In this document: in pieces, positions 546-22,045 of the stretch
Layout of the letters: each line of letters starts with the position of its first letter
How positions within the stretch are numbered: position 1 is the first letter of the stretch
Source of the DNA: Desulfobacterales bacterium
GTDB lineage: Bacteria; Desulfobacterota; Desulfobulbia; Desulfobulbales; JAJRZW01
Assembly: GCA_026993265.1 (NCBI GenBank)
Contig: JALWTY010000005.1
Coordinates: 1-32,599 of the forward strand
Direction of reading: 5' to 3'
Length of the DNA: 32,599 bases
Program-made: the position numbers and the translations under genes
The notes under the pieces: model-generated
The model's database searches: none
Told to the model about the DNA's origin: nothing
What the model saw: the letters and a program-made list of their open reading frames with translations, nothing else

Positions 546-577
546 GGACCGGCCCGAATCCGGGCCGGCCTTTTTTT
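546..577 (+). terminator. Rho-independent terminator downstream of the DnaJ-family gene
   Basis: CCGGCCCG-aatc-CGGGCCGG(CC) followed by TTTTTTT. Confidence 0.85.
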
Positions 578-808
578 GATGGACCCGTAACAACGGGTCC
601 ATCATCCGCCGCAGGACGCGGCGACGAAATTGTGCTGTTTGAAAAACTGCGTAATTTCGAGAGGAAAGCCGAAGCTACGCTTTGGCTTTCCGTTGAGTAA
701 AAACGGCAGGAAGCCGTTGTTACGATTTCATCTTTTTTGCTGCGCCCCCAAAAACTTCCGTAACAACCGCATCGTTTTTTCCTGTCAAACGGATAACCTT
801 CCGGTTAT
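577..808 (+). other. Dense run of inverted repeats; candidate structured RNA or patatin-gene leader
   Basis: Stems 577-588/593-604, 607-612/618-623, 625-631/653-659, 663-675/679-691, 702-707/713-718, alternative 713-724/759-770, 734-739/749-754, 793-798/803-808. Confidence 0.5.
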
Positions 809-866: not shown

Positions 867-2969
867 ATGGAGCAACGGGAACTGTTAGAAAGGGAGCGGG
901 AATACATCAGAAACCTGCGTGGCGGCGACTTTGATCCGCAAGACAGCGCCGGACTCGCCATCTCCGGGGGCGGCATCCGTTCCGCCTCGTTCGCCCTCGG
1001 CGTACTCCAGGCCCTTTGCCGTTTCGGTATTCTGGAAAGGCTTCATTATATGTCAACCGTTTCCGGCGGCGGCTACATCGGCTCCTGCCTGACCTGGATA
1101 ACCAACATGATGGCCCGGGAAGGGGACAACAAGGATCCGTGCAGCGGCCTGGGGCGCAAGGGGGAAGGGGCGCGTTCCGACGGCGATTCCAACCGCCTCA
1201 TCGACTTCCTCAGGCAGCACGGCAGGTACCTCACCCCGCCCGGACTCGACACCGCCTCCCTTGCCGGGGTGGTGCTGCGGAGCATGTTTCTCGGCCTTGT
1301 TGTCTATTTTCCGCCGGTGGCGGTCCTGTTCGGCGGTCTGCTCGCCCTGGGCGGGAAACTCGCCGCGGACGGGGCCCTGCCGTTTCTGCATATTGACAGC
1401 GCGGGCGGGGCCTTCTCCGCCCTGTTCCTCTTTCTGGCCGCGCTGACCGGGCTCGTTTTCGCGGCCATGTCCCTGGTCTACGCCCTGGCCACCGTCCTGG
1501 TCAAACGCTCCACCACCCTGGCCTACCGCATGCGGATCATCACCCAGAAGTACTTTGGCGCGGCCCTGAAGCTCGCGCTCTTCTGCCTCGCGGCCGCATC
1601 CATCCCCTGGGCGGTGAAAAGCGTAAGCGGCCTTGCCGCCGGGCTGTCGGTGTCGGCCGCCTCCCTGGCCAGCTCCATCACCGCCCTGTACGGCGCCCTG
1701 CGCAAGACCGGAACCAACCGCGGCAAAGGCGGAATATTCGACTCCGTCGCCGCCCCGGCTGCGGCCCTGATCCTGATATACGCCCTGCTCGCCGGGGCCT
1801 ATCTCTTTGCCGTCAACGCGGGCTCCCTGCTCGTTCCCGCGCTTCTGGCATCGCTTGTCACCGGCTTTGCGACCAACCTGAACTGCGTATCCCTGCACCG
1901 CATGTACCGTGACCGGCTGATGGAGATGTTCCTGCCCGACCCGGCAAGCGTGAAGGATAACAGATGGCGGCCAGCACGCCTGGCGGACACGGCTCCCCTG
2001 GTCTCGTTCCGGCTCGGGAAATATGCAGGAGTCAGGGCCCCGCTTCACCTGATAAACACCAACCTGATCATGGTGGACTCGGAAAAGGCCAAGTTCCGCG
2101 GCCGCGGCGGCGACAGCTTCATCCTCTCGCCGCTGTGCTGCGGCAGCGACGCCACCGGCTGGGTGGACACCGGCGACTTTGACGGCGGCGCGGTCACCCT
2201 GGCCACGGCCATGGCCATATCAGGCGCGGCGGTCAATCCGCACGCGGGCTGCTCGGGCCGAGGCGCGACCAGGAGCCGGCTGGTATCGTTTCTGATGTCG
2301 TTCTTCAACTTCAGGCTGGGATACTGGGCCACGAACCCGGCGAGGTCAAAAAAACGCATCCGGCCAAACTGTTTCATCCCCGGCCTGACCATGGGGCTGT
2401 TCGGACGAGGCTTCAACCGGAAAAGCAGGTTCATAGAGCTGTCCGACGGCGGCCACTTCGAGAACCTGGCGGTGTACGAGCTCATCCGCCGCCGGGTGCG
2501 GACCATCATCGTCACCGACGGCGGCGCCGACCCGGAGTTCAACTTCGCCGACCTCGCCAACCTGGTGGAAAAGGTGCGGGTGGACTTCGGGGTGGAGATC
2601 GAGTTTCCGACCTCCCCCGCCCCCATCGCCGATCTCGTGCCAGGCAGCGCTGACAAAAAAAGCCTGTACCTGGAAAAGTACCGCCTGGCGAAAAGGGGAT
2701 ACGCCGTCGGCCGGATAAAGTACCCGCATACCGAAAGCGAGGAGGCGGCCGAGGGCACGATATTCTACCTCAAGACCACCCTCACCGGCGGCCTGCCCGA
2801 GGATCTCTACGCCTACAAGAGCGCCAACCCGGAATTCCCGGACCAGTCCACCTCGGACCAGTTCTTCGACGAAACCCAGTTCGAGGCCTATCGGGAGCTC
2901 GGCTACCGCCTGGCCAAGAAGATGATCCGGGAAACCGGCGTGCTCACCGGTTCCGGCAAGGGTGGGTGA
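867..2969 (+). CDS. Patatin-like phospholipase family protein with internal multi-TM region
   Basis: LAISGGGIRSASFALGVLQAL, STVSGGGYIGS (nucleophile region), several hydrophobic helices, then SDGGHFENLAVYELIRRRVRTIIVTDGGADP; SD ggaagg aggg upstream of ATG. Confidence 0.88.
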   Translation: MEQRELLEREREYIRNLRGGDFDPQDSAGLAISGGGIRSASFALGVLQALCRFGILERLHYMSTVSGGGYIGSCLTWITNMMAREGDNKDPCSGLGRKGEGARSDGDSNRLIDFLRQHGRYLTPPGLDTASLAGVVLRSMFLGLVVYFPPVAVLFGGLLALGGKLAADGALPFLHIDSAGGAFSALFLFLAALTGLVFAAMSLVYALATVLVKRSTTLAYRMRIITQKYFGAALKLALFCLAAASIPWAVKSVSGLAAGLSVSAASLASSITALYGALRKTGTNRGKGGIFDSVAAPAAALILIYALLAGAYLFAVNAGSLLVPALLASLVTGFATNLNCVSLHRMYRDRLMEMFLPDPASVKDNRWRPARLADTAPLVSFRLGKYAGVRAPLHLINTNLIMVDSEKAKFRGRGGDSFILSPLCCGSDATGWVDTGDFDGGAVTLATAMAISGAAVNPHAGCSGRGATRSRLVSFLMSFFNFRLGYWATNPARSKKRIRPNCFIPGLTMGLFGRGFNRKSRFIELSDGGHFENLAVYELIRRRVRTIIVTDGGADPEFNFADLANLVEKVRVDFGVEIEFPTSPAPIADLVPGSADKKSLYLEKYRLAKRGYAVGRIKYPHTESEEAAEGTIFYLKTTLTGGLPEDLYAYKSANPEFPDQSTSDQFFDETQFEAYRELGYRLAKKMIRETGVLTGSGKGG

Positions 2970-2996
2970 TAAGGGAAATGGTGCCCACGGCGCACC

Positions 2997-3611
2997 CTAC
3001 TCGAACTGGCGCTTGAAGGCTGAAAACTCCTCTTCCAGGGCGGCGAGCCGGGCCCGGAGCTCGTCCAGTTCCTGCCTGAGCGGCGAGACCGGAGCGGCGG
3101 CTTGCGTTTCCGCCGGCTGTTCCGGTTCGCCGCAGAGGAGGTGGCACCAGCGGGACTCCTTCTTGCCCGGCTGGCGGGGCAGCTTTTTGGCGAGCCCCAT
3201 CCCGGCCAGGGTCTCGAGGCTTTCCCGCACCGCGGCCGGGGAATCGAAGGGATGCAGGCGGGAGGTGCGGCCGCGCAGCTCGCCCGCGGTCTGGGGGCCG
3301 CGGAGCAGGAGGAGACAGAGCAGGGCCGCCTCGGCCGCGGCGAGATCGAACCTGCCGGCCAGGTTGTGGCCGTAGCGATCGGCCCGGCCGCCCCGGCTGA
3401 CCACGGCGAGCTGTTTCTCCCGCAGCCCGGCCAGGGCCTCCTCGACCACATCCTCGCCGTAGTCCACCACCGGGTCGCGGTTGGAACGCTGGTTGCAGGC
3501 GTTGACCAGGGCGTTCAGGGTCAGGGGATAGTATTCCGGGGTGGCCATCTCCTTTTCCATGAGCGAGCCCAACACCCGGGCCTCTTCCACACTAAGGACC
3601 AGCTCATTCAT
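2997..3611 (-). CDS. yceH: YceH family protein (DUF480/UPF0502)
   Basis: [43 protein letters not shown] signature; start overlaps the purC stop by 8 bp. Confidence 0.92.
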
Positions 3612-4485
3612 CCCGGGTCAACCTCTCCAGGGCCTCGCGGTAACGGGCCGCGGTCTTTTCCACTATCTCCGGCGGCAGCGGCGGCGGGGGCGGGGTCTTG
3701 TCCCAGTCGAGGCCGCTTAAGTAGTCGCGGAGGAACTGTTTGTCGAAACTGGGCTGGGGGCCGCCGGGACGGTATTCGTCCAGGGGCCAGAAACGGGAGG
3801 AGTCCGGGGTGAGGACCTCGTCTATCAGAACAAGCTCGCCGTCGTGCCAGCCGAGCTCGAACTTGGTGTCGGCGATGATGATGCCCCGCTCGCGGGCGTA
3901 CTCCGCGGCCCGGCTGTAGAGGGAAACGCAGATCTCCCGGGCCCGCTCCGCGGTGTCGCGGCCGAGGATCTCCACCATGCGCTCGAAGGAGATGTTCTCG
4001 TCGTGGGCGCCCTGCTCCGCCTTGGTCGAGGGCGTGAAGATGGCCCCGGGCAGGCGGCCGGACTCCTCGAGCCCCTCGGGCAGCTCGAAACCGCAGACCG
4101 TGGTGGACTTCTGGTAGGCCTTCCAGAACGAGCCCGAGATGTAGCCGCGGACGATGCATTCCACCGGCAGGGGATCGGCCTTGACCACCAGCATGCTGCG
4201 TCCGGCCAACTGCTCCCGGTAGGGGGCGCAGGCGGCCGGGTAATCGGCCGGGTCCGCGCTTATCAGGTGGTTCTTCACCTGGTCCCTGAAGAAATCGAAC
4301 CAGAAGAGCGACATCCGGGTGAGCACCTCGCCCTTGCCGGGCACGGGCTCGTTCATCACCACGTCAAAGGCGCTCATCCGGTCGGTGGCGACCATGAGAA
4401 GCTTGCCGTCCACCTCATAGAGATCGCGGACCTTGCCGCGGTTGAGCAGTTTCAGATCTGGAAACTCGGTGCGCAATAGGGCCAT
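3604..4485 (-). CDS. purC: Phosphoribosylaminoimidazole-succinocarboxamide synthase
   Basis: [64 protein letters not shown] upstream. Confidence 0.97.
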
Positions 4486-21190: not shown

Positions 21191-22045
21191 TCAGGCATCA
21201 TCCTCGGAATTGTAGAGTTCGCTGGCCTTGGCGATCTCCTCGGGCAGATCGCGGACGATGACCTTGTAGTCGGCCATCTTCGACTTCACATGGCCGACAA
21301 GCTGCGGGGGCAAGGATTCCACCCGGCCGGGAATGGTGGAGTACTTCATCCGGCCGGCAAAGTATTCGGCGATCATCAGGATGCCGAGACAGCTATCCAC
21401 CTCGACACCGCGCTCGCGGTCGTGGTGGAAACGGATCGCCTTGAGCACCTCATCGGGGATGCCCCAGTCCCGGGCCAGGGCCGCGCCCACCCGACAATGG
21501 TCGGTCCCGATCCTTTCCCGCTCGAAAACGGGCAGGGTCCCCTTCTCCGGAGCATAGACCTCGCAGGTGGCCCGCAGCTCCACGGCCGCCACCTGATCCT
21601 CGGCGATGAGACCGATATCGTGGATTATGCCTGCCAGAAAATAATCCTCTCCCGGAATCCCGAAGATCCTCTTGGCGATCATCTCGCAGAGGATTGCCAC
21701 CGTGGCGCAGTGAAGCCAGAGGGCACGGCGGGAGAAGCCGCTGTCTTCCGCCTTGTCGCGGAACATGTCGCGCAGCGCCTCCACCGCCACCAGGTTGCGC
21801 AAGTGTTTCATGCCCACGAAGACCACGGCCTTGGCGATGGAATCCACCTCGTTGCTCATCCCGAAATAGGGGCTGTTAACCAGCCGCAGAAGCCTTGTCA
21901 CCAGGACGGGATCGAGCTTGATGACCTCTTCGAAGTCGTGCATGGTGGCGTTCTCCGAGCCTATGAGCTGGCCGACCCGGATGGCCACGTGGGGCAGCGT
22001 CTTGAGATCACTGAATTTTTTTACGATTTCATCGGTGTCGTACAT
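21191..22045 (-). CDS. HDOD domain protein
   Basis: LKTLPHVAIRVGQLI, LDPVLVTRLLRLVNSPYFG, AGIIHDIGLI, GAALARDWGIPDEVLKAIRFHHD. Confidence 0.9.
   Translation of the reverse strand: MYDTDEIVKKFSDLKTLPHVAIRVGQLIGSENATMHDFEEVIKLDPVLVTRLLRLVNSPYFGMSNEVDSIAKAVVFVGMKHLRNLVAVEALRDMFRDKAEDSGFSRRALWLHCATVAILCEMIAKRIFGIPGEDYFLAGIIHDIGLIAEDQVAAVELRATCEVYAPEKGTLPVFERERIGTDHCRVGAALARDWGIPDEVLKAIRFHHDRERGVEVDSCLGILMIAEYFAGRMKYSTIPGRVESLPPQLVGHVKSKMADYKVIVRDLPEEIAKASELYNSEDDA

What the first reader, a model, noticed from the sequence alone, without database searches (positions are those of the whole stretch)
549..808. Chain of consecutive hairpins with mutually exclusive stems: candidate structured RNA upstream of the patatin gene
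After the dnaJ terminator the DNA packs inverted repeats almost end to end: 577-604 (12-bp stem), 607-623, 625-659, 663-691 (13 bp with one G.U that pairs only in + strand RNA), 702-718. CGTAACAACGG at 586-596 recurs as its exact reverse complement at 714-724 and again as CGTAACAAC at 759-767. The 713-724 segment can therefore pair with 702-707 (partly), 586-596, or 759-770. The 759-770 arm is followed by ATCGTTTTTT, which would fit a conditional terminator. A decayed repeat element is the main alternative.
Basis: partly seen in the sequence, partly recalled or inferred. Interest (0 to 1): 0.6.

Follow-up and report, generated by a model that had tools for sequence, protein, structure and literature searches.

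The report
Mobile five-hairpin repeat with CsrA-like loops
The chain of hairpins is one copy of a small jumping DNA element found about 40 times in this genome; its core is a structure conserved as RNA across distant relatives, with two hairpin loops that look like docking sites for the global regulator CsrA, so a transposon may be spreading regulator-binding RNA around bacterial genomes.

Summary
The hairpins are real and far beyond chance (z -9.4), but they are not a patatin-specific switch. Window 578-732 is one copy of a 155-bp MITE: at least about 40 copies in this genome, both orientations, terminal inverted repeats, and 6-7 bp target duplications (here TTTTTT, in the T-tract of the dnaJ terminator). 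A 1.9-kb IS1182-like insertion sequence with the same ends and the same kind of duplication occurs in relatives (e.g. Desulfobulbus alkaliphilus); no such transposase was found in this genome.

It is more than a plain MITE. A covariance model of hairpins 2-4 finds the same core in many copies in other genera and families of Desulfobacterota, invisible to blastn, inside at least two kinds of transposon ends. Stems are rewritten by compensatory changes (25 and 27 of 35 pairs; 0/500 shuffles). G-U exceeds A-C 149:37, so the + strand folds. The loops of hairpins 2 and 5 keep C-ANGGAN-G (here pentaloops C-AGGAN-G), the CsrA/RsmE recognition pattern; hairpin 5 was not in the model, yet has GGA in 60/66 and 22/24 copies.

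Best explanation: a mobile RNA element that binds CsrA. Mobility and conserved structure are well supported; CsrA binding and transcription are inferred. The proposed conditional terminator is not supported.

The parts
549..577 (+). intrinsic terminator of dnaJ (8 G-C pairs, then CCTTTTTTT); the insertion site lies in its T-tract; not part of the element
   Evidence: DnaJ_C domain in the ORF ending at 502
572..577 (.). left target site duplication TTTTTT
578..732 (+). complete MITE copy, 155 bp, GATGG...CATC
   Evidence: about 40 copies in the genome
578..596 (+). left terminal inverted repeat GATGGACCCGTAACAACGG
   Evidence: 84% complementary over 19 nt to 714-732; outer 16 nt match the IS end at 14 of 16
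714..732 (-). right terminal inverted repeat GATGAAATCGTAACAACGG (read on -)
   Evidence: in older subfamily B the right end TTTTTACGAGTCCATC equals the IS end 16/16
577..604 (+). hairpin 1 (12 bp), made of the left end plus its own inverted copy
   Evidence: compensatory C-G to U-A and A-U to C-G changes among copies
607..623 (+). hairpin 2; loop 613-617 AGGAC closed by C612-G618; counterpart of the C-ANGGAN-G hairpin of relatives
   Evidence: GGA 28 of 28 rows with a loop, closing C-G pair nearly invariant, rest of stem covaries
625..659 (+). hairpin 3 (long, GAA-type loop)
   Evidence: 15 of 16 pairs with changes on both sides across genomes
663..691 (+). hairpin 4, with a conserved G.U pair
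   Evidence: 7 of 13 pairs with changes on both sides; the same G.U kept in 21/27 and 54/62 sequences
697..723 (+). hairpin 5; loop 708-712 AGGAA closed by C707-G713; overlaps the right end
   Evidence: GGA in every complete copy of this genome and in 60/66 and 22/24 copies of other genomes, where it was not part of the search model
733..738 (.). right target site duplication TTTTTT
759..773 (+). unique flank that could pair with 710-724; judged not part of the element
   Evidence: no second copy in the genome; weak fold

Best explanation
Window 578-732 is a non-autonomous transposable element (MITE) that carries a conserved five-hairpin RNA. Step 1 (shown by sequence): it spread by transposition with 6-7 bp A...T target duplications, using ends that match a 1.9-kb IS1182-like insertion sequence of related Desulfobulbales; the transposase acted in trans and was not found in this genome. 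Step 2 (shown by comparison): hairpins 2-5 are kept as a + strand structure across genera and families of Desulfobacterota, although the sequence and even the transposon ends changed. Step 3 (inferred): the RNA works through its two GGA hairpins as a CsrA/RsmA-binding RNA. When a copy is transcribed, from a neighbouring gene or by read-through, it either titrates CsrA or places a CsrA site on the host transcript. Which of these applies, and whether this particular copy just past the dnaJ terminator is transcribed at all, is unknown.
For: Mobility: about 40 copies, mostly 95-98% identical, both orientations; 17 of the 24 A-type full-length copies have perfect 6-7 bp duplications with the element taken as GATG..CATC; IS with the same ends and duplications ATATGT, AATTTT, ATGATT, AAGTAT, ATGAAGT, AAAGATT, ACATAT, AAGACT, ACTCAT; an internally deleted IS derivative that keeps the transposase C-terminus. 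Structure: core in 8 of 116 genomes of the order and 16 of 395 of the phylum sample; 27/35 and 25/35 pairs with two-sided changes, 96% of cells paired against 74-77% in shuffles and 32-49% in slid controls; G.U 149 against A.C 37. CsrA-like loops: GGA 28/28 in hairpin 2, closing C-G nearly invariant, the N positions vary; GGA in hairpin 5 in 60/66 and 22/24 copies although it was not modelled. Two copies align full length to Rfam RsmW, an RsmA-binding sRNA, below its gathering score (38.4 and 37.1 against 52 bits; E 2e-5 and 3.7e-5). All 8 carriers of the order sample encode CsrA; this genome has two csrA-like genes.
Against: No expression or binding data. This genome has pentaloops C-AGGAN-G, one base shorter than the consensus hexaloop. 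The window copy follows a strong terminator and shows no sigma70-like promoter. Orientation to tandem genes is not significantly biased (26 sense, 16 antisense, p = 0.16). CsrA in 8/8 carriers is weak support (86 of 116 genomes have it, P = 0.08). The RsmW match is below threshold and absent for the window copy and for most copies tested. GGA in hairpin 2 is partly built into the search model. A few copies have lost or inverted the GGA loop.
Confidence: 0.6

Rival explanations
1. An ordinary structured MITE: the hairpins are a by-product of palindromic DNA ends and of palindrome correction by template switching, with no RNA function.
For: All MITE hallmarks are present; hairpin 1 is just the end plus its inverted copy; minimal palindromic derivatives exist (L078); template switching can make compensatory changes without selection (general knowledge).
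Against: Palindrome correction does not explain loop conservation while stems change, the nearly invariant loop-closing C-G pair, the excess of G.U over A.C (149:37), or one core kept within different transposon ends.
Confidence: 0.25
2. A conserved structured RNA (or single-stranded DNA) element whose GGA loops serve another partner, such as the ribosome, another RNA-binding protein, or the transposition machinery.
For: GGA and GAGG resemble Shine-Dalgarno sequence; the hairpin 3 loop is also conserved (GAA in 25 of 29 rows); the core travels with mobile ends.
Against: The exact pattern, conserved A, GGA and C-G closing pair with free N positions, is the one known for CsrA/RsmE (own knowledge). 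The parent IS encodes a DDE transposase acting on double-stranded ends and differs between the containers, so loop recognition by one transposase is unlikely.
Confidence: 0.13
3. A cis-regulatory switch of the patatin gene with mutually exclusive stems and a conditional terminator.
For: 710-724 can pair with 759-773 and T-runs follow.
Against: The third arm is single-copy flank; the downstream gene differs at each copy; fold z is only -1.74; the same-genus genome G001 has no patatin match at this place.
Confidence: 0.02

Closest known systems
MITEs of IS1182-like/ISNCY-like insertion sequences (parent: 1,887-bp IS of Desulfobulbus alkaliphilus DSM 24258)
   Same: shared ends GATGGACTCGTAAAAA, 6-7 bp A...T target duplications, no coding capacity, mostly intergenic, many near-identical copies
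   Different: its inside is not a remnant of the IS but a conserved RNA-like core that also occurs within other transposon ends
Csr/Rsm sRNAs, nearest Rfam model RsmW (RF02809)
   Same: several hairpins, GGA in apical loops of the first and last core hairpins; two copies align over the whole model; RsmW binds RsmA in vitro and derives from a 3' UTR (PMC4950607)
   Different: below the gathering score; tens of dispersed mobile copies rather than one to five genes; no known Gac-type promoter; outside gammaproteobacteria
TwoAYGGAY motif (Weinberg et al. 2010, PMC2864571)
   Same: by name and by my own knowledge, two AYGGAY loops and a proposed CsrA link
   Different: no Rfam match of any copy tested; reported taxa there are human gut, gammaproteobacteria and Clostridiales
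MITE-derived sRNAs (Coxiella QMITE1/QMITE2; reviewed in PMC10969869)
   Same: sRNAs arising from MITE copies, stable stem-loop transcripts
   Different: no reported protein-recognition loops conserved across species and across different transposon ends
Multicopy palindromic intergenic elements of Geobacter (PMC2700814, PMC2996986) and the Chunjie MITE
   Same: same phylum in GTDB (own knowledge), dispersed palindromic elements, some proposed to be RNA elements
   Different: consensus given there (GRCGTAGCGCTGCTACGCC) is not this core; supplements with the alignments could not be read, so overlap with part of those sets cannot be excluded

Membership tests
MITE | short, non-coding, multicopy | tested here: met
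   155 bp, about 40 copies in 2.57 Mb
MITE | terminal inverted repeats shared with an autonomous element | tested here: met
   ends match the 1.9-kb IS at 14/16 and 13/16; subfamily B right end 16/16
MITE | target site duplication | tested here: met
   6-7 bp, perfect in 17 of 24 A-type full-length copies
MITE | autonomous partner in the same genome | tested here: not met
   no match to the transposase or to PF13751 in this assembly; many contigs end inside repeats, so a missed copy is possible. Not essential to the definition
IS1182 family (parent transposase) | NCBIfam NF033551 score above the cut-off 270 | tested here: not met
   172, 159 and 144 bits; related by DDE_Tnp_1_6 and DUF772 domains; called IS1182-like only
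ISNCY/ISDol1 group (parent IS) | ISfinder group model | not testable with these tools
   6-7 bp duplications and about 1.9 kb fit what I remember of ISDol1; no ISfinder data held (only names the group)
Csr/Rsm-binding RNAs | ANGGA in apical loops of at least two hairpins | tested here: met
   hairpins 2 and 5 in relatives; in this genome AGGA pentaloops
Csr/Rsm-binding RNAs | binds CsrA/RsmA | not testable with these tools
   needs an in vitro shift assay
Csr/Rsm-binding RNAs | csrA gene in the host | tested here: met
   8 of 8 carriers in the order sample, proteins read for five of six loci
RsmW (RF02809) | Rfam gathering score 52 | tested here: not met
   best 38.4 bits
REP/RAYT elements | hairpins mobilised by a Y1 transposase, no target duplication | tested here: not met
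   clear target duplications and a DDE parent
cis-regulatory riboswitch upstream of patatin | conserved association with one type of downstream gene | tested here: not met
   unrelated neighbours: YchF, PurA, DHDPS, HAD, PabB-like, T2SSE, PHP

The most novel reading that the evidence does not exclude
A mobile regulator-binding RNA: a transposon-borne RNA module with two CsrA-type hairpins, exchanged between at least two unrelated transposon ends and dispersed in tens of copies through genomes of Desulfobacterota, where it acts as a distributed CsrA sponge or plants CsrA sites in host transcripts.
Probability: 0.5. Interest if true: 0.88.

Novelty: new variant of a known kind. Interest (0 to 1): 0.72.

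Why it matters
MITEs are usually treated as passive debris and Csr/Rsm RNAs as a few dedicated genes. If this element binds CsrA, transposition would be a direct way to rewire or buffer a global post-transcriptional network: each new copy adds a decoy or puts a gene under CsrA control. It would also give a reason why a structured MITE persists at tens of copies per genome in lineages that lack the matching transposase. The structure, with conserved loops across several families, is at least an RNA family for which no Rfam model reached threshold.

Tried and rejected
Conditional terminator: rejected. Known Rfam family: nothing above the gathering score for the window or for other copies (the only strong matches there were tRNAs next to the element). 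Preference for terminators: only two of the copies examined sit directly in a terminator T-tract (L001, L007), so no general rule. Empty site in the sister species: not usable, because the dnaJ-patatin stretch is rearranged in G001. Exact DNA pattern in genome contigs: no match outside the own genome. Plasmids: no match. An apparent IS in L110 was a chance pair of ends around a host gene. G010 copy L084 alone does not fold well; the intact G010 copies do. Orientation bias toward host genes: not significant. Literature: no paper found linking CsrA with MITEs or transposable elements. MAFFT alignment of the whole set misplaces hairpin 3; covariation was therefore counted on model-based alignments, which lean toward the structure, with slid and shuffled controls.

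Full report
1. Observation. Window 577-732 as + strand RNA folds at -79.3 kcal/mol against -42.8 for dinucleotide shuffles (z -9.44, 0/200). The minus strand is also structured but weaker. The exact repeats CGTAACAACGG (586-596; reverse complement 714-724) and the near match at 759-769 are confirmed. The dnaJ terminator at 549-568 with its T-tract is confirmed.

2. It is a repeat with sharp borders. Searching this 2.57-Mb, 300-contig assembly with 549-808 gives 41 matches, nearly all starting at query position about 28 and ending at about 184, that is window 577-732, at mostly 93-98% identity. Pattern searches with the right end give further contig-end pieces. In all there are 27 full-length copies and 31 partial ones, many of the latter cut by contig ends, so two pieces may belong to one copy; at least about 40 copies exist. 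The flank 733-866 is single-copy.

3. It is a MITE. With the element taken as GATGG...CATC (578-732), 17 of the 24 A-type full-length copies have perfect direct repeats of 6 or 7 bp on both sides, typically starting with A or T and ending with T. At the window copy the duplication is TTTTTT, in the T-tract of the dnaJ terminator. Terminal inverted repeats are GATGGACCCGTAACAACGG and GATGAAATCGTAACAACGG (84% complementary). Copies lie beside unrelated genes in both orientations. A second, older subfamily B (about 88% identical; L032, L034, L035, L039, L040, L077) has ends with AAAA instead of ACAA.

4. The parent insertion sequence. The outer motif GATGGACTCGTAAAAACGG (up to 2 mismatches) occurs in 66 of 258 genomes of the order, up to 139 times in one genome (G151), whereas the reversed control pattern gives at most 2 per genome. 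One locus had transposase C-terminus between two such ends. Searching with it found IS copies with an open frame of about 584 residues in several genomes, up to 18 copies in G096. The IS is about 1.89 kb, is flanked by the same ends, and has duplications ATGAAGT, AAGTAT, AATTTT, ATGATT, ATATGT and AAAGATT and ACATAT, AAGACT and ACTCAT. The named example is in Desulfobulbus alkaliphilus DSM 24258, contig NZ_JAFFQC010000001.1, which indicates that the window's order is Desulfobulbales. The transposase is IS1182-like: NF033551 172 bits, below its cut-off of 270; Pfam DDE_Tnp_1_6 and DUF772. No such transposase was found in the window's genome, so the family is probably stranded there now, although a copy in an assembly gap cannot be excluded.

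5. It is also a conserved RNA. Within this genome, copies show compensatory changes: 7 pairs with two-sided changes and 23 cells, 0/500 shuffles as high. A divergent element in the same genome (L072) keeps hairpins 2-3 with different stem sequence and different ends. A covariance model of hairpins 2-4 (R1) then found the core in 8 of 116 genomes of the order: 36 matches here, 36 in the same-genus genome G001 and 35 in G010 (the search scored at most 36 candidates per genome, so these are lower bounds), 17 in G027, 6 in G221, and 1-2 in G013, G035 and G037. blastn had found none in G001 and one fragment in G010.

6. Covariation. On 27 distinct core copies, 27 of 35 pairs have changes on both sides, 190 such cells, 96.2% of cells paired against 73.8% in shuffles and 33-46% in slid controls. 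On 62 further copies: 25 of 35 pairs, 342 cells, 95.8% against 77.3% and 32-49%. The alignments are fitted to the model, so the absolute percentages lean toward the structure; the number of two-sided changes is the firmer figure. G.U cells outnumber A.C cells 52:12 and 149:37. A G.U on one strand is an A.C mismatch on the other, so the + strand is the one that folds.

7. Loops. In hairpin 2 the loop is C-ANGGAN-G: GGA 28/28 rows with a loop, A and the closing C-G almost invariant, the two N positions variable, while neighbouring stem pairs change freely. Hairpin 5 lies outside both search models, yet it has GGA in its loop in 60 of 66 copies from G001, G010, G027 and G271 and, by reading the listing, in 22 of 24 copies found at phylum level. 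In this genome both loops are pentaloops, C-AGGAC-G (37 of 38 complete copies) and C-AGGAN-G (all complete copies). From my own knowledge, (A/U)CANGGANG(U/A) is the RsmE/CsrA recognition element and RUACARGGAUGU the CsrA SELEX consensus; several copies contain ACANGGANGU exactly (e.g. L171, L181, L185).

8. Links to Csr/Rsm. Two copies (L179, L181) align to the entire Rfam RsmW model at 38.4 and 37.1 bits, below the gathering score of 52; the window copy and a dozen others do not. RsmW is an RsmA-binding sRNA with GGA motifs in outer loops, derived from a 3' UTR (PMC4950607). CsrA is encoded in all 8 carriers of the order sample, but also in 78 of 108 non-carriers (P = 0.08). This genome has two csrA-like genes (C177, C202).

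9. Different containers. In G001, G010, G027 and G221 most copies have ends CAGYCCGTTGAAAAA...CAACGGRCTG flanked by 4-bp duplications NTAN (26 of 47 perfect, 15 with 3 of 4; shuffled partners give 5.3 on average, at most 13 in 1000 shuffles). In G027 a copy (L196) has GATGACTTCGCAA-type ends with ATATAT on both sides. Further genomes show other ends (L173, L175, L208, L211). At phylum level the core occurs in 16 of 395 genomes, 12 of them outside the order. One RNA core in unlike transposon ends argues that the core, not the ends, is what is preserved; how it moves between containers is unexplained.

10. Mechanism. Shown: transposition-type spread, the IS family that fits, and the conserved + strand fold with GGA loops. 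Inferred: the RNA binds CsrA; it acts when transcribed from neighbours. Not shown: transcription. The window copy follows a terminator and has no sigma70-like promoter, so it may be silent in sense. Orientation to tandem genes is 26 sense to 16 antisense (p = 0.16), no clear support for selection on transcribed orientation.

11. Verdict. The riboswitch-like conditional terminator is not. No description of a transposon-borne CsrA-type RNA was found in the papers held; the supplementary files of the Geobacter repeat catalogues (PMC2700814, PMC2996986) could not be checked.

Noticed in passing
L161 (NZ_JAFFQC010000001.1), 2386-4272: 1,887-bp IS1182-like insertion sequence of Desulfobulbus alkaliphilus DSM 24258 with ends GATGGA[TC]TCGTAAAAA and duplication ACATAT; the probable parent type of the MITE.
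   Followed up: yes
L089, 813-1519 (G072:C291): Internally deleted derivative of that IS: about 0.7 kb between the two ends, still with the transposase C-terminus; an intermediate between IS and MITE.
   Followed up: partly
L162 (JAHDND010000174.1): A contig labelled Candidatus Thiosymbion (a gammaproteobacterium) carries a Desulfobulbales-type copy of the IS, 86% identical in protein with duplication AAGACT; either contamination of the MAG or a recent transfer.
   Followed up: no
L106, 1501-1662 (G155) and L104, 1392-1519 (G151): Other MITE families with the same GATGGACTCGTAAAAA ends but a different interior; G151 has 139 and G155 59 matches to the end motif.
   Followed up: no
L078, 1531-1576 (G000:C294): Minimal perfect palindrome GATGGACTCGTAAAAACGGCAGGATGCCGTTTTTACGAGTCCATC: both ends around a single AGGAT loop.
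   Followed up: no
L054, 1450-1506 and L058, 1457-1544: Shorter derivatives with only the hairpin 5 module behind TTTAACAGCCCGTTGAG, a mosaic of the two kinds of ends.
   Followed up: no
window 22018-22033: A second match to the IS end (GATGAAATCGTAAAAA, - strand, 2 mismatches) near the end of an ORF; possibly a solo end or chance.
   Followed up: no
L178 hairpin 5; L215 hairpin 5: Loop inverted (GTCC instead of GGAC) while the stem is kept, suggesting that loops can flip at the DNA level in a few copies.
   Followed up: no
G000:C202:11430-11627: A second, atypical csrA-like gene whose RNA-binding domain carries an insertion after IRLSDEVDPDTP (86-residue open frame).
   Followed up: no
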